A program made the position numbers and the translations under genes. 55,320 nucleotides of DNA. Source: Eubacteriaceae bacterium (GTDB lineage: Bacteria > Bacillota > Clostridia > Eubacteriales > Eubacteriaceae). Shown here in pieces: positions 42,862-51,187 of the stretch. The notes under the pieces are model-generated. The model saw only the letters and a program-made list of their open reading frames with translations. It ran no database searches and was not told where the DNA came from. Position 1 is the stretch's first letter. Each line of letters starts with the position of its first letter. The stretch covers positions 1-55,320 of the forward strand of contig JAENWK010000006.1 of NCBI GenBank assembly GCA_016650045.1, written 5' to 3'.

Positions 42862-43368
42862 TTATGCCTTTAAGAGAATTCCTTTAAGCGCTTCTATTGG
42901 GTGACTTTTTTCGAAAATCATTTCTCTGGCTGCCACAAATTTATCCACGGCCGTTACAATCCAACTGCCAAGATGCATGGGTGGTACGGGTGTTAAGGGA
43001 AACATATGCTTTATAATCATATCCGCTTGAAGTTCGTCAATATCAAAATATTTTTGGGCATTGACGAGGGCTGTTTTCGGGTGGGAAAAACCGTGCATAT
43101 CTTTGATCCGCTGGATCCCTTTAGAATTTTTTTTCTTTCCCCGCCATGACTCCACAAAAAAATCATGGAGCAGAGCACCGCGTGCGACTGAAACGTAATC
43201 TAATCCAAGAACCCTTGCCACTCGGTAGGAATGATACCCCACTGCAACTGAATGTTCATAAAGACCGTTGCCATGATGTTCAATTAATTTTAACTTCTGA
43301 AATTCACTATGTGTTAATATATCCCCAACAATTGTTTCGAATTCCTGGTTATGCTTTCTTTTTACCAT
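42862..43368 (-). CDS. HD-domain hydrolase
   Basis: 168 residues with the metal-dependent HD phosphohydrolase pattern: an upstream histidine in NGLYEHSVAVGYHSYRVA, the HD pair in GALLHDFFVESW, then HGFSHPKTALVNA and a late aspartate in TAVDKFVAARE. Such domains hydrolyse nucleotides or phosphate esters; the substrate is unknown. It ends 59 bases before the icd-like start and may be co-transcribed with it. Confidence 0.85.
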   Translation of the reverse strand: MVKRKHNQEFETIVGDILTHSEFQKLKLIEHHGNGLYEHSVAVGYHSYRVARVLGLDYVSVARGALLHDFFVESWRGKKKNSKGIQRIKDMHGFSHPKTALVNAQKYFDIDELQADMIIKHMFPLTPVPPMHLGSWIVTAVDKFVAAREMIFEKSHPIEALKGILLKA

Positions 43369-43512
43369 TAAGACCTTTCATAATCGCTTTACTTTGCTCG
43401 AATCAGCTTTTATCCTTTTTTATTATAACATATTATCTTAATTTTAGTTGATGCTTTTTCGATTGTATAAAAAAAACATGTATAAATGATAGCTTTTTAA
43501 GAAAAAACGGAC

Positions 43513-44382
43513 TTATTTTTTAAGCACATCATTTCTTTTCAATGCGTTAATATGCTTTTTATGAGCGTCCACCAGTTTATTAACCACCGCGATTTTTTCG
43601 ATAATGATGGTGATAATTTTATCCAATTCACTGCCTTCTGTATAATCAGCTTCGACAATAAAATCCACCCGGCCATCAATGAGCAGCTCCGCCACTTTTT
43701 TCTTTTTTCTGCACTCATAAACGGCAATGGACTGCCCTCCATTGGATTTAACCAATTGCATACAGGGAACATCCGTTAACCCATCCCCTATATAAATCAT
43801 ATTTCTGAAGGGTATTCTGCGATCATCTTTGTGGAGATATTTATTTAAGCCCTCATCATCCGAGACTTCCAGAATCCCTTTGTTAATTCGAAAAAGGAAT
43901 TGGGTTTTTGTGGTATAATTAATTACCATTTTTGGCCAGTCGGCAAGGCCATTTTGATCATAGTGAAATTCACAGGCATAAATCTTTTTAAACTCTTTGC
44001 TAATCGTTGAACCTTCAATGATTTCTTTTAAACCCGAAGAAATCACATAATGTTCAATGGTCACCCCTAAATGATGTCCAAGATCATTGATTCGCTTAAA
44101 CCACTCGGTGACTCCCTCAAAATACTCGATACCCGCACCAAGTTCAACAAATTTTTGCCGATGGATTGGAATCTTTTTTTCATTGGATTTTTCAATCATC
44201 ATATACATAGCGGCGAGGATCCGATCCATTCCTTCCTGGGTAGCCAATCGATTGGTTTCATTCCAGAATTCATCGGGTCTTAGTCCCAAACTGGGAATAA
44301 ATTCATATTCCTGCATATCCTTCGTGCAAAGGGTCTTATCAAAATCATACATAATGGCAATCACAGGATTCTTTTTTAACAT
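43513..44382 (-). CDS. HAD-superfamily phosphatase coupled to the helicase operon
   Basis: 289 residues. HAD motif I is MYDFDKTLC (D13, D15), motif II the serine in HYVISSGLKEII, and motif IV IGDGLTDVPCMQLV. A cap region of about 80 residues follows motif I, as in phosphoserine-phosphatase-like HAD enzymes. The substrate is unknown. Its ATG has GGAGGTGG upstream and lies seven bases inside the 3' end of the helicase gene, so translation is probably coupled. It is the last gene of the TerB-N/ATPase/helicase operon and may belong to that system. Confidence 0.88.
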   Translation of the reverse strand: MLKKNPVIAIMYDFDKTLCTKDMQEYEFIPSLGLRPDEFWNETNRLATQEGMDRILAAMYMMIEKSNEKKIPIHRQKFVELGAGIEYFEGVTEWFKRINDLGHHLGVTIEHYVISSGLKEIIEGSTISKEFKKIYACEFHYDQNGLADWPKMVINYTTKTQFLFRINKGILEVSDDEGLNKYLHKDDRRIPFRNMIYIGDGLTDVPCMQLVKSNGGQSIAVYECRKKKKVAELLIDGRVDFIVEADYTEGSELDKIITIIIEKIAVVNKLVDAHKKHINALKRNDVLKK

Positions 44383-46550
44383 TTTCCACCTCCGAGTCCT
44401 TTTTTTAAAGCTTTAACATCTAGAAAGTCTTCAATATATTGTTTTTTTAATAATTCCTTTGGTATGAACTCATTGAATTTACCCTTAATCTGAACCTCGT
44501 CCGAAAATGTAAATTGGTTGGCATCCAATGGTTCTATTTTAATTTTTAATAGTATTTCTTCAATTGAAGGCTTTGAATGATCCTTTATAAAAATACAAAG
44601 CGGCATTCCTTTATCATAGTAACATTGATTTTTAAAACCGAAAGCGTCCAGTGCATAGGACAGGGTGACGAATTCTTTGGTTCCCAGAAACGGAAATATT
44701 CCAAAAAGTTCGTCGTTTATCTGGACAACCATTTCATTGGTTATATTGGCATTTCCTGCTACCCGTCTAATTTCTGCTAACCGCGCCATGGCTGATTCAC
44801 TGAGATATTTATAAGCCGTATCGCTTTTTAGAAGTTCTTTGATCTTTTGAGTAATTTTTGTATAAACTGTATACTTCCCATCGCTGCTCCAATTGTTTGT
44901 TGAAATCCCTTTGATTTCTTTAACAAAAATAATGCCAGCCTCTTTATCGATATCCATAGTTTCCCATGTCCTGCCAGCTAAAGCAAATCGTTCTCCAATG
45001 GGGAAAGCTTCCTGAACAGTTCCAATTTCTTCAGAATGAAATTTAACGCTATACTCTTTCGGGGTTTCAAAAACAGTATAAAATTCAAAATGATTGACTT
45101 CATTTTCACCTTTTTCACCAATGAGCAGCCCATTATTTTCAGTAATTTCCAATTGTTCAATTTTCACTAAATACCTTAGCATCTTTTTGTAATCTTCCTG
45201 GGAGATTTCTTTAAATAAACTCAGTGATAACATGGTTTGGGCCAAACGCGCCGGTGAAATTTCTCCTGCTGATACCATGGTGCTCATGGTTTGGTGGTAA
45301 AGGATGCCATAGGGCAGTTTGTTTTGCAAAATCGGTTCGATCCATTTTTCTTCCAAATAAAGCTGAATCATAGCAATGCACATGAGAAAGCTCCAATTAA
45401 TGGCTTTGTAAAATTCTTCGTGGACTTTTCCAGTATCTTCTCTAAAAACAAACCACATTTCCGATGGATTCCCCCGTCGGCCGGTTCGTCCCAGACGCTG
45501 AACGAAACTGGACACAGAAAGAGGGCAACCGGTTTGGACAATCCGTTCCAATTCTCCCAAATCAATTCCCAGTTCCAGGGTTAAGGTTGCGCCGGTGACA
45601 ATGGGCAGCGTTGATTGTTTCATTTTTTTCTCGGCGTATTCTCGAAAGCTTGCGGAAATATTCCCATGATGCACCAGGTAAACATTGTCTGTTTTATTTT
45701 TCATGGCAATTTTTTTGACGTTGGCAATACTTTCTTCCACTTCCGCTTTTGAGTTTGAAAATAAAATACATTTTTTCCCAAAAGTACTGGCGTATAAATA
45801 TTGGTAGTACTGCTTCATTAATTCTTTATCGTCTTTTTTCTCGCTGTTGTATTTGACAAAAAAATGTTGGAGGGATAATCTGAGGCTGCGTTTTTCATTT
45901 CCAAACACCGGTGTTTGACAATGTCGATTCGTCCCGGAATTCAGCCATTTTTCAGCCAGGCTGTAATCCCCCAAGGTGGCGGATAAACCGATTCTGATGG
46001 GCACATTATTGGTCAGTTTTTGTATTCGTTCCAATATGCAGATAAGCTGAGCCCCTCGTTCCTCACTCATAAAATAATGAACTTCATCAATAATTATGTA
46101 TTTAAGATCCGAAAATAATTTAATGGCTTCGGTTTTTCGATGCATCAGCATCGCTTCCAGTGATTCGGGGGTGGTCTGCATAATCCCCTGGGGATTTTTC
46201 AGAAGTTTGTTTTTATCGGCTCTGCTGGCATCTCCGTGCCATTTTGTTACCGGAATCCGGCTTTCTTCCAACAATCCCTCAAGACGGTCAAACTGATCAT
46301 TGATCAGGGCTTTAAGGGGACTGATATATAGAACACCCAGGGATTTTGATGGTTCTTCGTATAATTTAGTCAATACCGGAAGAAACGCCGCCTCTGTTTT
46401 TCCACTGGCGGTGCCAGATGACAAGAGCAGGTTATCATCTGTATTTAAAATCACATCAATGGCACCCACTTGAATATCCCGAAGATCATCCCAGCGTTCT
46501 CGGTAAATATAATCTTGTATAAAAGGGGCTAATTTATGGAAGGTATCCAT
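44376..46550 (-). CDS. Lhr-like DEVH-box superfamily 2 helicase
   Basis: 724 residues. Helicase motifs are SGTASGKT (45-52), DEVH (155-158), LSATLGD (189-194) and QRLGRTGRRG (351-360). TGATLTLELGIDLG is the motif V region of Lhr-type enzymes. The C-terminal half (about 400-724) resembles the extra regions of Lhr/BrxHI helicases but has no motif I name. The start ATG overlaps the ATPase stop (TAATG), so the two are coupled. It probably unwinds or translocates on DNA or RNA within a complex with the upstream ATPase. Confidence 0.9.
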   Translation of the reverse strand: MDTFHKLAPFIQDYIYRERWDDLRDIQVGAIDVILNTDDNLLLSSGTASGKTEAAFLPVLTKLYEEPSKSLGVLYISPLKALINDQFDRLEGLLEESRIPVTKWHGDASRADKNKLLKNPQGIMQTTPESLEAMLMHRKTEAIKLFSDLKYIIIDEVHYFMSEERGAQLICILERIQKLTNNVPIRIGLSATLGDYSLAEKWLNSGTNRHCQTPVFGNEKRSLRLSLQHFFVKYNSEKKDDKELMKQYYQYLYASTFGKKCILFSNSKAEVEESIANVKKIAMKNKTDNVYLVHHGNISASFREYAEKKMKQSTLPIVTGATLTLELGIDLGELERIVQTGCPLSVSSFVQRLGRTGRRGNPSEMWFVFREDTGKVHEEFYKAINWSFLMCIAMIQLYLEEKWIEPILQNKLPYGILYHQTMSTMVSAGEISPARLAQTMLSLSLFKEISQEDYKKMLRYLVKIEQLEITENNGLLIGEKGENEVNHFEFYTVFETPKEYSVKFHSEEIGTVQEAFPIGERFALAGRTWETMDIDKEAGIIFVKEIKGISTNNWSSDGKYTVYTKITQKIKELLKSDTAYKYLSESAMARLAEIRRVAGNANITNEMVVQINDELFGIFPFLGTKEFVTLSYALDAFGFKNQCYYDKGMPLCIFIKDHSKPSIEEILLKIKIEPLDANQFTFSDEVQIKGKFNEFIPKELLKKQYIEDFLDVKALKKGLGGGKC

Positions 46551-47869
46551 TAAATTTCAAATTCCTCAAATTCTTTCTCAAGAGCTTCCTCATTTAATTC
46601 TGTCTTTGCAAACTCAAAGGTTTCAATTTGCATAATATCAGAAATATTTTTGCTGGGGTTCTGATAAATGATATTCAACAGCTCAATAAAATCACGAATG
46701 ATTTCACGGGGGGTAATGTTGGTGCTTGCCCCTACCCGTGAATATTCAATTTTTATGAAATTAATCATATCCTCTTCGGCAATGTTGGATTCATAATCAA
46801 AAAGGCCGGCATGGATATCCGCTAATTTTTCGATGAGAATGTACATTTCTTCCGGCGAAAGAGGTGCCAATCGGATGATTGGAGCCAGCATATCCCGAGT
46901 GTCTTCGGTTGCGAAGCGACCTTCTGCCAGCCGTGATTTCAGGGCTTCATAACTAAATACCCCGCGGCGGGTGTCTTCAATACACTGGGGGGTTCCTCCC
47001 ATAATAATGCCGATATGCTTTGCTTTTCCCTGGAGGGTATCATTATACATCATCAGTATTTTTTCGTAATTGTATTGTCTGGTAATGGCATTGGGAACCT
47101 TGTAAATGTTCACCAATTCATCAATAAGAATGAGCATTCCACTGTAACCTGCTTTGACTAAAAACAATGCAAAGATCTTAATATATTCATACCAATCATC
47201 GTCTTTGATAATAATACTTACCCCTAAATCCCGCTTTGCCTCTGTTTTAGTGGCGTATTCTCCTCGAAACCACTTTAATACTTTCCCTTTTGTTTCATCA
47301 TCACCCTGAGTATAGGCATTAAAATACATGGAAATCATTTTCGCAAAATCAAATCCATGAACTAAGCCTTCAATCTCATTCATGACATCATAAATTTTAG
47401 TTTCCACCAGTTGATTAAAGTTTTCATCCTCAGAGGAGATCCTGTTTTCGGTAATGACTTGGGTTTTTACGCCACTGATCCATTTTTCCAAAATCAGGGG
47501 CAAGGCTCCGCCATCAGGTCTGGTCTTCGTTGACATATTTTTCATGAGTTCCTTGTAGGTGGCGATTCCCTGGCCTTTTGTTCCAACCAATCGTCGTTCA
47601 GGAGACAGATCCGCATCCACCACCACGAAATTTTTGTCCATTACATAGGAGCGCATTGTTTGAAGCAAAAAACTTTTACCACTGCCATACTTCCCAACAA
47701 TAAATCGAAATGATGCACCGCCGTCTTCGATGATATCAATGTCATGCAGCAATGCCTTTATTTCTATTTCTCTGCCAACAGCAATGTAAGGCAGGCCAAT
47801 TCTCGGCACAACCCCACCCTTTAAAGCATTCATAATTGTTGTGGCAATTCTTTTAGGAACCATAGCCAT
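46550..47869 (-). CDS. DUF2791/BrxD-type P-loop ATPase
   Basis: 439 residues. Walker A is GKYGSGKSF (59-67) and Walker B is MLILIDEL (D250, E251). Other segments typical of the DUF2791 (BrxC/BrxD) family are PYIAVGREIEIKALLHDID near the start, MGGTPQCIEDTRRGVFSYEAL and SRLAEGRFA. It has an AGGAGG ribosome site, starts just inside the gap after the TerB-N gene stop and is coupled to the helicase. Related ATPases in BREX and similar systems are thought to load or drive the helicase. Confidence 0.9.
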   Translation of the reverse strand: MAMVPKRIATTIMNALKGGVVPRIGLPYIAVGREIEIKALLHDIDIIEDGGASFRFIVGKYGSGKSFLLQTMRSYVMDKNFVVVDADLSPERRLVGTKGQGIATYKELMKNMSTKTRPDGGALPLILEKWISGVKTQVITENRISSEDENFNQLVETKIYDVMNEIEGLVHGFDFAKMISMYFNAYTQGDDETKGKVLKWFRGEYATKTEAKRDLGVSIIIKDDDWYEYIKIFALFLVKAGYSGMLILIDELVNIYKVPNAITRQYNYEKILMMYNDTLQGKAKHIGIIMGGTPQCIEDTRRGVFSYEALKSRLAEGRFATEDTRDMLAPIIRLAPLSPEEMYILIEKLADIHAGLFDYESNIAEEDMINFIKIEYSRVGASTNITPREIIRDFIELLNIIYQNPSKNISDIMQIETFEFAKTELNEEALEKEFEEFEI

Positions 47870-47871
47870 AT

Positions 47872-49497
47872 TTATATAACCTCCTGTAATTCAACTTTAT
47901 ATTCGTCGTAGATCCATGGATTTTCGTCATTTATTTCAATCAGGTTGTCATCGATATGCTCTAACGCTTTTTCATTAATGGCCTCAATGAGAACCGAGAT
48001 CATCCGGTCTTTCTTCTTGGCTATATCACCAATTTTTTTCCACTGGTGACTGAGCAAAAGCTTGATTATTTCTTTTTCATCAGGGGTTAAATGATTTGAA
48101 AAACACTGCATCCCACTTATTTTTTCTGTCGGAATGATTCGTGGTTTTTTAATGATGATCTTTTCTTGCTCTGTAACGATCGGTTCAATGATTAAAGTAT
48201 TCTGGGTGTTTTGGGCAATTCTTCGTATTTCATCAAATTTAGTAGTATCGATTTTAATAATCACTGGCTCTATTTTTTCAGGAATCACCATTTCTCTGGT
48301 CTTTTCCTTTTCTTTTTTGTTTTTTTGCTGTTCTTTCAGTCTTGGATATAAATCCATTTTATGTTGTTCTTCGCAATATTTTCTAACGGTTTTTTCAATC
48401 AGACTGGTTAATACTTTAGAAGAGCCCCTAAACGTAATTTTGTATGAATAATTATATAGTTCCCTTAGATAGAACTCCGTGGTTCTTAGCATTTCTCCGA
48501 TGAAACGTTTATCACTGTAGTATTCGGAATAAGAATACTTGAGCCATTCTCCATTTTCACAGACATACCGTTCGAAATCATTGACAATAGATTTCCGATC
48601 CAAATTTTTTGTGTTCTCATAAAATATACCGCTACGAAATGGAACCCAGCTATCACATGATTCTTTTCCAAACATTTTCTCAAAAAGAGTTGTTTTTCTG
48701 TTTTTATCGTAAAAATCTTCTATTTCCATATAAACCATAGTTAAGGCTTCAATGTAATCATTTTTAAATTCTTTTAAGAATTTACTTTTAAGAATTTTAT
48801 AATTTGAAAAGTCATTAATTAATTCCATAAATCGAAGAAAATTCTTCTCGCTGATCGCAGCCTGGATATCCCCCAGGGCAAAAAGATAAGGATTTTTTTT
48901 TCTGGGAATGTCCTTGATTCGGCTAACATCCATTTCATAATAAATAACATAGTCTTTTAACCAGTCTTTTAAATAGCGATCAATTTTATTATCATAATCT
49001 CTGTATTCATTCCAGATAAACAGTAATTTTTCAAATCCATTTTGAGGTGAGGTCACACCGATGCCATTAATTAATTCATAGATATAAACAAAAACAAAAG
49101 AACTGCTTGTTTTTTCAACAATCCCTTTTCTGACCTTTGTTCGCCAGGTAAAATATCCTCGCAGCTCTGGAAATGACATATCCGTATATTGGGGTAAGTA
49201 TCTTAACACCTCGCCATAATAAGCATAATCATCTTCAAAGTTTTCCATAAACTTGGCCTGTAAATAAAATCGAGCGTTGATATACTCACTTTGCCAATAA
49301 AAGGTATCATTCTTTGGCACTATTCTTAGCATTTCTTTGTATTTTTTAGGGGCAGGCACGGCAAGTTCCGAGGCTTTTTTTATAATTGCCTCTGGTCGAT
49401 AGGATGATTTATTTTTATCGTCATCATTCATATTGACCTTCATAATCTTTGCTTTTGCCAATGCTTCATTGATTAATTTCAAAATATTCGATTCCAT
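47872..49497 (-). CDS. TerB-N domain protein, first gene of the ATPase/helicase operon
   Basis: 541 residues from the ATG at 49497, which has AGGAAAG about nine bases upstream; an ATG at 49554 would add 19 residues. The TerB-N signature is YFTWRTKVRKG (115-125) followed by FVFVYIYELINGIG. Middle residues are helical. A lysine/glutamate-rich linker near 365-395 leads to a TerB-C-like region (KIDTTKFDEIRRIAQNTQ) and a C-terminal domain. TerB-N proteins accompany DUF2791 ATPases and Lhr helicases in a set linked to tellurium-resistance-like stress and DNA processing. No enzymatic motif is seen, so it is likely a scaffold or sensor. Confidence 0.85.
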   Translation of the reverse strand: MESNILKLINEALAKAKIMKVNMNDDDKNKSSYRPEAIIKKASELAVPAPKKYKEMLRIVPKNDTFYWQSEYINARFYLQAKFMENFEDDYAYYGEVLRYLPQYTDMSFPELRGYFTWRTKVRKGIVEKTSSSFVFVYIYELINGIGVTSPQNGFEKLLFIWNEYRDYDNKIDRYLKDWLKDYVIYYEMDVSRIKDIPRKKNPYLFALGDIQAAISEKNFLRFMELINDFSNYKILKSKFLKEFKNDYIEALTMVYMEIEDFYDKNRKTTLFEKMFGKESCDSWVPFRSGIFYENTKNLDRKSIVNDFERYVCENGEWLKYSYSEYYSDKRFIGEMLRTTEFYLRELYNYSYKITFRGSSKVLTSLIEKTVRKYCEEQHKMDLYPRLKEQQKNKKEKEKTREMVIPEKIEPVIIKIDTTKFDEIRRIAQNTQNTLIIEPIVTEQEKIIIKKPRIIPTEKISGMQCFSNHLTPDEKEIIKLLLSHQWKKIGDIAKKKDRMISVLIEAINEKALEHIDDNLIEINDENPWIYDEYKVELQEVI

Positions 49498-49661
49498 TGA
49501 GTTCTTTCCTTTTTGTTGATAAACATTCTGGGATTTTTGATGGGAACCAATCATTATTGATGTGTTCTTCCTTAATCTCTTATTATACTATAGTTACAAT
49601 TGAAATGAGTGCTATTTTTTTTACTTTTGCATAAAAGTTGAGTTTTCTTAATAATAACCAC

Positions 49662-49688
49662 AAAAAATAGCGACCTTGCCGATCGCTG
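49662..49688 (-). terminator. Terminator after rodA-pgi
   Basis: On the minus strand AGCGAT (49687-49682) pairs with GTCGCT (49674-49669), 6 bp with a terminal T-G, then TATTTTTTG. It lies 160 bases past pgi. The rest of the gap 49498-49849 shows no gene. Confidence 0.6.
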
Positions 49689-49849
49689 TTGACTGTTGAT
49701 AACCCTCCTATTTCAATGCCTTATAAATGATTGGTTGCATACGAATCAAACAGATTGATCCTGTTTAGCCTGATACCCCAGACAATAAAATATTATATTA
49801 AAAATACAGTCATGACTAACCTGAATGGTGTTCTCTCATTGTGCTCTGT

Positions 49850-51187
49850 TTATAATCGCTTTTCCAATTCTGCTGTAAGGGCTTCATAGCCAGGCTTATG
49901 GAGAAGTGCGAACATATTTTTCTTGTAGGCTTCAACCCCAGGCTGATCAAAAGGATTCACCCCTAGAAGATATCCATTAATGCCGCAGGCTTTTTCAAAG
50001 AAATAAATAAGCATGCCAATGTTAAAAGCATCCAGTTTGTCAAGATGAATAATCCCATTAGGAATGCCACCATCCACATGTGCCAAAAGGGCTCCCATGT
50101 AGGCTTTTTCATTAACTCCATCAATATTGCGCCCCGCCAGGTAATTCAGACCTTCCAGATCCGTTTTATTGTAAGGAACCTCAAATGACGACTGTTCGTC
50201 GTCAATCACAACCACGGTTTCAAAATGATTCTTAGGGCCATCCTGGATCATTTGTCCCATGGAATGAAGATCTGTGGAAAAATGGACGGCGGCAGGAAAT
50301 AATCCTTTACCGTCTTTTCCGTCACTTTCCCCATAAAGCTGTTTCCACCATTCCCCGATGTATTCCATACCGGGATCATAATCCACTAAAATTTCAATGC
50401 TTTTCCCCCGGTTATAGAGTACATTTCGATATAATGCATATTGGAAGCATGGATTTTCATAAAAATTCGGATTTTGGTATTCCTCGTATCCCGCTTTTCC
50501 ACCGGCCATGAAGGCATCAATGTCAATACCCGCAGCGGCAATGGGCAGTAATCCCACCGCGGTATAAACCGAATATCGCCCACCGATATCATCGGGAATA
50601 ACAAAGCATTCATAGCCTTCTTCATTGGCCATAAATTTCAAGGCCCCTCGGGATCGATCGGTTGTTACAAAAATTCGATCCTTCGCACCCACCTTGCCAT
50701 ACTTTTTTTCAATAAAGTCTTTGAAAAAGCGAAAGGCGATGGCTGACTCAGTAGTGGTTCCAGATTTGGAAATAACATTAACGCAAACTTCCTGGTCTTT
50801 TAAAAGCTCCAGAAGATTTTCTAAATATTTTCCACTGATATTCTGTCCGGCAAAATAAACTTTTGGCGCTTTTCTTTTCGAACGTGGCTCTTCATTAAAA
50901 AATGGGCTGGTTAATGCTGAGATAATGGCTTTCGATCCAAGATAGGACCCACCGATGCCGATGACCACCAGGGCATCGCAGCTCTCCTGAATTTTTTTTG
51001 CCGCTTTTTTAATCCGGGCGTATTCCTCCTGGTCATAATTAACCGGATAATCCACCCAACCAAGAAAATCTTTTCCAACCCCGGTTTTCGCCATTAATGC
51101 CTTGTTGGCCAAGGCCAATTGTCCAAAACGATTTTCAAATTCACTGGTGTTTATATTTGCATAAGAGAGATCAAACTGAATACTCAT
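49850..51187 (-). CDS. pgi: Glucose-6-phosphate isomerase
   Basis: 445 residues, the short Gram-positive form. It interconverts glucose 6-phosphate and fructose 6-phosphate. Seen are LVVIGIGGSYLGSKAIISAL, VISKSGTTTESAIAFR (phosphate-binding SKSGTT) and DDIGGRYSVYTAVGLLP. The C-terminal GVNPFDQPGVEAYKKNMFAL is the other hallmark. It lies 41 bases after rodA, probably in one transcript. Confidence 0.97.
   Translation of the reverse strand: MSIQFDLSYANINTSEFENRFGQLALANKALMAKTGVGKDFLGWVDYPVNYDQEEYARIKKAAKKIQESCDALVVIGIGGSYLGSKAIISALTSPFFNEEPRSKRKAPKVYFAGQNISGKYLENLLELLKDQEVCVNVISKSGTTTESAIAFRFFKDFIEKKYGKVGAKDRIFVTTDRSRGALKFMANEEGYECFVIPDDIGGRYSVYTAVGLLPIAAAGIDIDAFMAGGKAGYEEYQNPNFYENPCFQYALYRNVLYNRGKSIEILVDYDPGMEYIGEWWKQLYGESDGKDGKGLFPAAVHFSTDLHSMGQMIQDGPKNHFETVVVIDDEQSSFEVPYNKTDLEGLNYLAGRNIDGVNEKAYMGALLAHVDGGIPNGIIHLDKLDAFNIGMLIYFFEKACGINGYLLGVNPFDQPGVEAYKKNMFALLHKPGYEALTAELEKRL

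What the first reader, a model, noticed from the sequence alone, without database searches (positions are those of the whole stretch)
43513..49554. Coupled TerB-N / DUF2791 ATPase / Lhr-like helicase / HAD operon: candidate DNA-processing or defence system
Four genes are read as one unit. TerB-N and ATPase are two bases apart, ATPase and helicase share TAATG, and helicase and HAD overlap by seven bases. The ATPase and helicase look like BrxD and BrxHI, but no PglX, PglZ, BrxA, BrxB or BrxL is in the window. From memory, TerB-N/DUF2791/Lhr associations were noted in comparative work on Ter systems, but a function has not been shown to my knowledge. It sits between housekeeping genes (icd-like/HD and rodA-pgi), like a small acquired island.
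Basis: partly seen in the sequence, partly recalled or inferred. Interest (0 to 1): 0.85.

Follow-up and report, generated by a model that had tools for sequence, protein, structure and literature searches.

The report
Shango anti-phage operon plus phosphatase gene
The four-gene cluster is a Shango anti-phage defence system, a kind already shown to hinder phages in other bacteria, with an extra phosphatase gene at its end; it is a good new example rather than a new kind of system.

Summary
In detail: four minus-strand genes at 43513-49554, spaced as described; the first probably starts at 49497. Profiles identify genes 1-3 as SngA, SngB and SngC, the complete Shango anti-phage system (E 4e-74, 4e-191, 4e-233). 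Shango restricts phages in Pseudomonas aeruginosa and, as cited there, E. coli (PMC10250203, passages), so 'function not shown' is wrong. The locus is accessory: SngA in 6 of 19 genus genomes; Shango at the pgi-HD site in 2 of 16 readable sites. The closest sampled relative shares the insertion, with the HAD gene cut after 62 codons. The HAD phosphatase is no general Shango partner: SngA/B/C lie in the flanks of 0 of 93 other HAD loci, though it also follows an Azaca operon in one genome. SngA is the least conserved subunit in 253 of 253 pairs, and shows no TerB domain in 22 of 22 SngAs from the window's phylum and Paenibacillus (7 of 8 others have it), so SngA is the likely sensor. Mechanism is inferred. 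New member of a known kind.

The parts
47872..49554 (-). SngA: TerB_N + TerB_C protein, no detectable central TerB domain; likely start 49497 (541 aa)
   Evidence: PADLOC SngA 4.4e-74 over 64-526 of 528; Pfam TerB_N 4.2e-30, TerB_C 1.6e-12; start from comparison with the closest relative and AAGGAAAG upstream
46550..47869 (-). SngB: BrxC/BrxD-family AAA+ ATPase
   Evidence: PADLOC SngB 3.7e-191; PF10923 2.4e-168; K65-S66 (Walker A) and D250-E251 (Walker B) invariant in 15 SngBs (motif names recalled)
44376..46550 (-). SngC: superfamily 2 helicase with Lhr-type winged helix
   Evidence: PADLOC SngC 4.4e-233; DEAD 9.1e-32, Helicase_C 4.5e-16, WH_Lhr 1.9e-6; GKT, DExH, SAT and QRxGRxGR residues invariant in 15 SngCs
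43513..44382 (-). HAD-type phosphatase (PADLOC PDC-S34), lineage-specific fourth gene overlapping sngC by 7 bases
   Evidence: PDC-S34 2.1e-126; HAD PF12710 6.8e-8; model pLDDT 93.8; D13, D15, S115, K159, D200, D204 invariant in 37 sequences
49555..49849 (-). Gap between pgi and the sngA ORF; weak terminator-like hairpin at 49687-49669, no convincing promoter
   Evidence: whole scan 43300-49900: terminator-like 4 found against 5.2 in shuffles; promoter-like 27 against 22.8, sd 4.3; neither exceeds chance

Best explanation
The locus is a complete, apparently intact Shango anti-phage system (sngA-sngB-sngC) in a variable chromosomal site between pgi and an HD-domain gene, with a HAD phosphatase gene as a fourth, overlapping cistron. 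Shown here: identity by profile, gene order, conserved catalytic residues, presence/absence in the genus, and one insertion shared with the closest sampled relative. Reported in the literature for other Shango systems: restriction of phage growth. Inferred mechanism: SngB, a BrxD-like AAA+ ATPase, loads or activates the Lhr-like helicase SngC on invading DNA; SngA, the fast-evolving TerB_N/TerB_C subunit, recognises the phage-specific state and licenses the pair. No nuclease domain was recognised in the three proteins, though parts of SngA and the C-terminal end of SngC carry no Pfam domain; so the outcome is more likely disruption of phage DNA replication, or exposure of phage DNA to host nucleases, than direct cutting. 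The HAD protein is a phosphatase with a fold like phosphoserine phosphatase and cytosolic 5'-nucleotidase; it probably acts as an optional accessory.
For: SngA/B/C are the best PADLOC hits and exceed BREX models (SngC 774 bits against BrxHI 427; SngB 634 against BrxD 155); the BrxD equivalog cut-off is missed (154.5 of 350 bits). Same order and tight spacing in 23 complete triads and in 10 of 14 plasmid loci fetched (the other four had no complete annotated triad). Catalytic residues invariant. SngA in 6 of 19 genus genomes. pgi-HD interval read in 16 genomes: 2 with Shango, 14 without. Window and G001 align through pgi, sngABC and the first 60 HAD codons (one 5.46-kb stretch at 77.6%). SngA is least conserved in 253 of 253 pairs, means 27/55/46% for A/B/C; dN window-G001 0.203/0.050/0.097 against 0.063-0.108 for three flanking genes (rodA, pgi, HD). 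No PADLOC hit in 10 flanking proteins. Activity of PA14 Shango: PMC10250203, passages.
Against: Anti-phage activity of this copy is untested, and PA14 Shango did not affect all phages tried. dS is saturated (1.2-3.6) and the second method failed for 3 of 6 genes, so dN/dS is unreliable; fast SngA change may be relaxed constraint rather than an arms race, and the 253 pairs are not independent. The single-sequence SngA model failed (pLDDT 33.5), so its role rests on profiles and divergence alone. The tree joining window and G001 has support of only 60. HAD has no proven link to Shango: 2 of 398 genomes carry both HAD and SngA, about 0.9 being expected by chance, and in one of the two they lie about 256 kb apart; it is broken in G001.
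Confidence: 0.88

Rival explanations
1. A remnant or minimal BREX type 2 system: BrxD and BrxHI left over after loss of PglX, PglZ, PglW and BrxC.
For: SngB is in Pfam BrxC_BrxD and SngC matches BrxHI at 3e-128; PMC12839542 (passages) describes BrxD-BrxHI as a tightly linked dyad.
Against: SngB and SngC models score far higher than BrxD/BrxHI, BrxD equivalog cut-off not met, no defence hit among 10 flanking proteins, and the same three-gene set recurs in 23 triads.
Confidence: 0.04
2. A four-gene defence system in which the HAD phosphatase is an obligate effector, for example removing a nucleotide or phospho-intermediate needed by the phage.
For: Seven-base overlap with a ribosome-binding-like GGAGGTGG upstream; the same HAD family is a PADLOC candidate model and stands directly after ZacABC (Azaca) in genome G414; fold near cytosolic 5'-nucleotidase III and phosphoserine phosphatase.
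Against: HAD follows Shango only in the window and, truncated, in G001: 2 of 30 loci; in four of the other 28 (L021, L221, L225, L230) the contig ends at or just past the genes, but those genomes have no HAD match at all. 0 of 93 HAD loci elsewhere have SngA/B/C in their flanks. G001 keeps SngABC intact without a whole HAD.
Confidence: 0.12
3. A DNA repair or stress module with a housekeeping role, not defence.
For: SngC has an Lhr-type winged helix and a sub-cut-off match to the ligase-associated DEXH helicase (210.8 of 850 bits); TerB_N/TerB_C proteins belong to the wider Ter group (recalled).
Against: Patchy distribution (6 of 19 in genus; 23 of 398 in phylum sample); triads on plasmids of several phyla; neighbours such as HsdM in a relative and ZorA on one plasmid.
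Confidence: 0.07

Closest known systems
Shango (SngABC) of Pseudomonas aeruginosa PA14 and E. coli
   Same: Three genes: TerB-type protein, ATPase, DEAD/DEAH helicase (PMC10250203 passages); all three PADLOC Sng profiles met.
   Different: SngA here has TerB_N and TerB_C but no PF05099 TerB match, while PMC10952713 lists PF05099 for Shango (passage); a HAD gene follows as fourth cistron. The PA14 and E. coli proteins themselves were not fetched or compared.
BREX type 2 BrxD-BrxHI pair
   Same: Homologous ATPase plus helicase dyad. PMC12278908 (passages) places SngC, BrxHI, DruE and DpdJ in a potentially distinct helicase clade.
   Different: No BREX core gene among 10 flanking proteins; BrxD equivalog cut-off missed.
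Azaca (ZacABC) followed by the same HAD family, genome G414
   Same: PDC-S34 HAD gene directly after the last gene of a three-gene defence operon.
   Different: Different core genes; a single example.
HAD phosphatases SerB, MtnX and cytosolic 5'-nucleotidase III
   Same: Fold: Z 17.4, rmsd 3.2, 204 aligned to SerB 3m1y_C; MtnX 2fea_B Z 16.0; best Foldseek hit 2jga, E 4.4e-10.
   Different: Sequence identity about 15%; no solved relative by sequence at the thresholds used; substrate unknown.

Membership tests
Shango | SngA: TerB-type protein matching the SngA profile | tested here: met
   4.4e-74, 64-526 of 528 positions; TerB_N and TerB_C over curated cut-offs
Shango | SngB ATPase | tested here: met
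   3.7e-191; Walker residues invariant
Shango | SngC DEAD/DEAH helicase | tested here: met
   4.4e-233; helicase residues invariant
Shango | Three genes contiguous in the order A-B-C | tested here: met
   23 triads
Shango | Reduces phage propagation | not testable with these tools
   Reported for PA14 Shango in PMC10250203 (passages), not for this copy
Shango sub-architecture with central PF05099 TerB domain | PF05099 between TerB_N and TerB_C | tested here: not met
   No hit at E <= 0.1. 0 of 22 SngAs scanned from the window's phylum (20) and Paenibacillus (2); 7 of 8 others have it, 5 of them over the curated cut-off. It is not needed to match the SngA profile, so it does not exclude Shango; a diverged domain may be missed
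BREX | PglX/BrxX, PglZ and BrxC core | tested here: not met
   None among 10 flanking proteins; the remaining ORFs of the window were not scanned with PADLOC
BREX BrxD | NCBIfam BrxD equivalog cut-off (350 bits) | tested here: not met
   154.5 bits
HAD superfamily phosphatase | DxDxT motif, conserved Ser, Lys and GDxxxD | tested here: met
   invariant in 37 sequences; PF12710 over cut-off; fold. The motif list is recalled

The most novel reading that the evidence does not exclude
PDC-S34 HAD phosphatases are portable add-on modules that some clostridia attach behind helicase-bearing defence operons (Shango here, Azaca in G414), where they change the outcome, for instance by hydrolysing a nucleotide-type or phospho-signal raised during infection; and the Shango of this phylum senses phage through a TerB-less SngA, so that the TerB domain that gave the system its description is dispensable.
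Probability: 0.15. Interest if true: 0.5.

Novelty: new member of a known kind. Interest (0 to 1): 0.3.

Why it matters
Shango is known to hinder phages, but I saw no mechanism in the passages and listings I looked at (a 2026 review lists it as unknown). A form without a detectable TerB domain, and a pair of related genomes in which one kept and one lost the phosphatase gene, give natural comparisons for finding which parts are needed. The consistent divergence of SngA relative to SngB and SngC makes a sensor role directly testable by swapping SngA alone.

Tried and rejected
BREX remnant: rejected by profile scores and cut-offs. Obligate four-gene system: not the main reading, because HAD is absent from 28 of 30 SngA/Shango loci read and SngABC from the flanks of 93 of 93 HAD loci. 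HAD beside defence genes in general was not measured: I scanned hand-picked neighbours at 6 HAD loci (L118, L119, L120, L122, L125, L131). One clear case, ZacABC in L122. A divergent HAD beside a NERD-helicase gene (L125) and a HAD fragment beside a PDC-S20 gene (L131) are weaker; L119 and L120 gave no hit and L118 one marginal hit. L133 has a ZacC-like piece about 6.5 kb away with ordinary-looking genes between.

SngA structure: single-sequence model useless, so no fold search was made with it. No solved relative of SngA except one chance-level row at E 0.42, and none of SngB up to E 0.1. Viral contigs: pattern hits but no SngA or SngB relative; phage records: no SngA. These are negative at those sensitivities only. 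Promoter/terminator scan not above shuffles.

Rows dropped: of the 30 loci, the 23 used for identities exclude L016 (orphan SngA), L223 and L225 (split or cut genes), L226 and L228 (SngA not caught by my phmmer query, although the SngA profile found it), L230 and L231 (two contigs of one genome). For the TerB count, plasmid loci L233, L238, L243 and L245 were not scanned, as no complete annotated SngA was shown. Two rows of the 7 of 8 are near-identical haloarchaeal copies below the Pfam cut-off. G336 (HAD fragment) and G411 (E 6e-4) count in the 16 of 398 but not in the 93 loci. Many HAD flanks are shorter than 8 kb because contigs end. Three of the 19 genus genomes (G007, G008, G011) had no readable pgi-HD interval; G011 carries a Shango elsewhere. 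The SngC-like plasmid count (972 records) may include BrxHI and was not used as a Shango count.

Papers: passages only of PMC10250203, PMC12839542, PMC11096173, PMC12278908, PMC10952713, PMC12926258; all others as search listings. Millman 2022 and the 2012 Ter comparative paper are recalled or seen only as citations (one search found papers citing the latter, not the paper). A HAD-Shango link in print was sought and not seen; the library lacks most subscription papers and preprints from bioRxiv.
Full report
What is there. Four minus-strand genes occupy 49554-43513. The first gene probably starts at 49497: the closest orthologue begins at the residue matching Met20, and AAGGAAAG precedes that ATG.

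What the genes are. PADLOC profiles name genes 1-3 SngA (4.4e-74), SngB (3.7e-191) and SngC (4.4e-233), the complete Shango system, and gene 4 PDC-S34 (2.1e-126), a label that, as I recall it, means single-gene phage-defence candidate. Pfam gives TerB_N and TerB_C for SngA, BrxC_BrxD for SngB, DEAD, Helicase_C and WH_Lhr for SngC, and HAD for gene 4. NCBI's BrxD equivalog cut-off is missed (154.5 of 350 bits). The catalytic residues of SngB and SngC are invariant across 15 homologues each, and those of the HAD protein across 37, so nothing looks decayed.

What is known of the system. PMC10250203 (passages) describes Shango as TerB-like protein, ATPase and helicase, expressed it from PA14 in PAO1, and reports a modest 10- to 100-fold effect on plating of many, but not all, phages tried; it cites a 10-fold effect on two phages in E. 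coli. PMC12278908 (passages) puts SngC with BrxHI, DruE and DpdJ in a potentially distinct defence-helicase clade. PMC12839542 (passages) suggests that BrxD may load or activate BrxHI; its main text holds neither 'Shango' nor 'TerB'.

Distribution. SngA occurs in 6 of 19 genomes of the genus and in 23 of 398 sampled from the phylum. The pgi and HD genes are neighbours across the genus, and the interval could be read in 16 of 19 genomes. Two carry Shango there (the window and G001). Fourteen do not: three have only a gene of 152-175 aa, ten also have a gene of about 500 aa, and G012 has a different 484-aa gene with a 153-aa one. The 509-aa gene of G005 and the 505-aa gene of G001 are GGDEF-EAL proteins; the others were judged by size and N-terminus only. 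The four other Shangos of the genus belong to another clade (SngB 48-49% identical to the window) and lie elsewhere, one right after an HsdM methyltransferase gene.

One shared insertion. Window and G001 align through pgi (81% DNA identity), then for 5.46 kb at 77.6% through sngABC and the start of the HAD gene, and again at HD; the HAD gene of G001 matches for 60 codons and stops after 62 (profile hit with a stop). Shango proteins there are 68/92/85% identical against 85% for pgi. A pgi+HD tree pairs the two genomes, with weak support of 60. So Shango with HAD was probably present in their common ancestor, and G001 lost HAD but kept sngABC.

The HAD gene. Of the 19 genus genomes it is intact only in the window's. 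In the phylum sample HAD occurs in 16 of 398 genomes and SngA in 23; both occur in 2, the window's and G217, where they lie about 256 kb apart. About 0.9 joint genomes would be expected by chance. In the 30 SngA/Shango loci, HAD follows in 2; in four of the other 28 the contig ends at or just past the genes, but those genomes have no HAD match at all. No SngA, SngB or SngC was found in the flanks of any of 93 HAD loci, 13 from the phylum sample and 80 from genome contigs. The immediate neighbours there mostly look like ordinary chromosomal genes by eye. In G414 the same family directly follows ZacA-ZacB-ZacC. The HAD model is confident (pLDDT 93.8), with a fold like SerB (Z 17.4, rmsd 3.2, 204 residues) and cytosolic 5'-nucleotidase III (E 4.4e-10). 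Fold does not give the substrate.

SngA. Across 23 triads SngA is the least conserved protein in 253 of 253 pairs (means 27, 55 and 46% for A, B, C). The pairs are not independent, but the window-G001 pair shows the same (dN 0.203, 0.050, 0.097; flanking rodA, pgi and HD 0.063, 0.083 and 0.108; dS saturated throughout). SngA also has the lowest G+C of the four, 32.8% against 37.8-40.1%. PF05099 TerB, listed for Shango in PMC10952713, is undetectable at E 0.1 in 22 of 22 SngAs: 20 from the window's phylum, the orphan of the own genome included, and two from Paenibacillus plasmids. It is present in 7 of 8 from Proteobacteria and haloarchaea; five of the seven are over the curated cut-off, and the two below it are near-identical haloarchaeal copies. 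The exception is Komagataeibacter. TerB_N and TerB_C are present in all 30. So the TerB domain is not a constant part of SngA. A diverged domain that Pfam misses remains possible, since the SngA model failed.

How it most likely works. By homology with BrxD and BrxHI, SngB probably loads or activates SngC on DNA. SngA, the variable partner, is the best candidate for recognition. None of the three Shango proteins shows a recognised nuclease domain, although the C-terminal end of SngC and the middle of SngA carry no Pfam domain; so blocking phage replication, or exposing phage DNA to host enzymes, fits better than cutting. These steps are inferred. The HAD phosphatase is best seen as an optional, lineage-specific accessory.

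Verdict. The finding is real and correctly sensed as defence, but the system is a known one. Its points of interest are the apparently TerB-less SngA of this phylum, the consistent divergence of SngA, and the appended HAD gene with its Azaca parallel.

Noticed in passing
L016:5760-8054 (own genome, contig C206:37759-40053): Orphan SngA-like protein (764 aa, hydrophobic N-terminus by eye) without SngB or SngC in the 19 kb read, close to a phage-type integrase gene and with a resolvase gene a few kb away; perhaps cargo of a mobile element.
   Followed up: partly
L122:1808-9143 (genome G414): Azaca genes ZacA-ZacB-ZacC directly followed, 20 bases on, by the same HAD family as in the window.
   Followed up: partly
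L241:1151-8373 (Phaeobacter inhibens plasmid pP88_c): Shango triad followed by an overlapping DUF4297 anti-phage-associated gene: another fourth gene behind the helicase.
   Followed up: partly
L235 and L240 (haloarchaeal plasmids): Shango triads followed by metallophosphoesterase, SMC-type and NurA genes.
   Followed up: no
L214:6096-10391, L217:7764-11456, L236:189-3347: Very long SngA proteins (1431, 1230 and 1052 aa) with large extra N-terminal regions before the SngA core.
   Followed up: no
L227:8909-10882, L229:9024-11003, L235:2140-4629, L240:1140-3629: SngA proteins that begin with a TM2 membrane domain, while the window SngA has none; SngA localisation may differ between lineages.
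   Followed up: no
L018, L019, L020, L021: SngA of the other genus clade gives two separate matches to the end of the SngA profile, as if the TerB_C domain were duplicated.
   Followed up: no
L058-L072, pgi-HD intervals of the genus: The pgi-HD site is variable: GGDEF-EAL gene, transporter-like gene (by eye), sulfatase, Shango, or nearly empty. The window lacks the GGDEF-EAL gene and the 150-aa gene that most relatives have there.
   Followed up: partly
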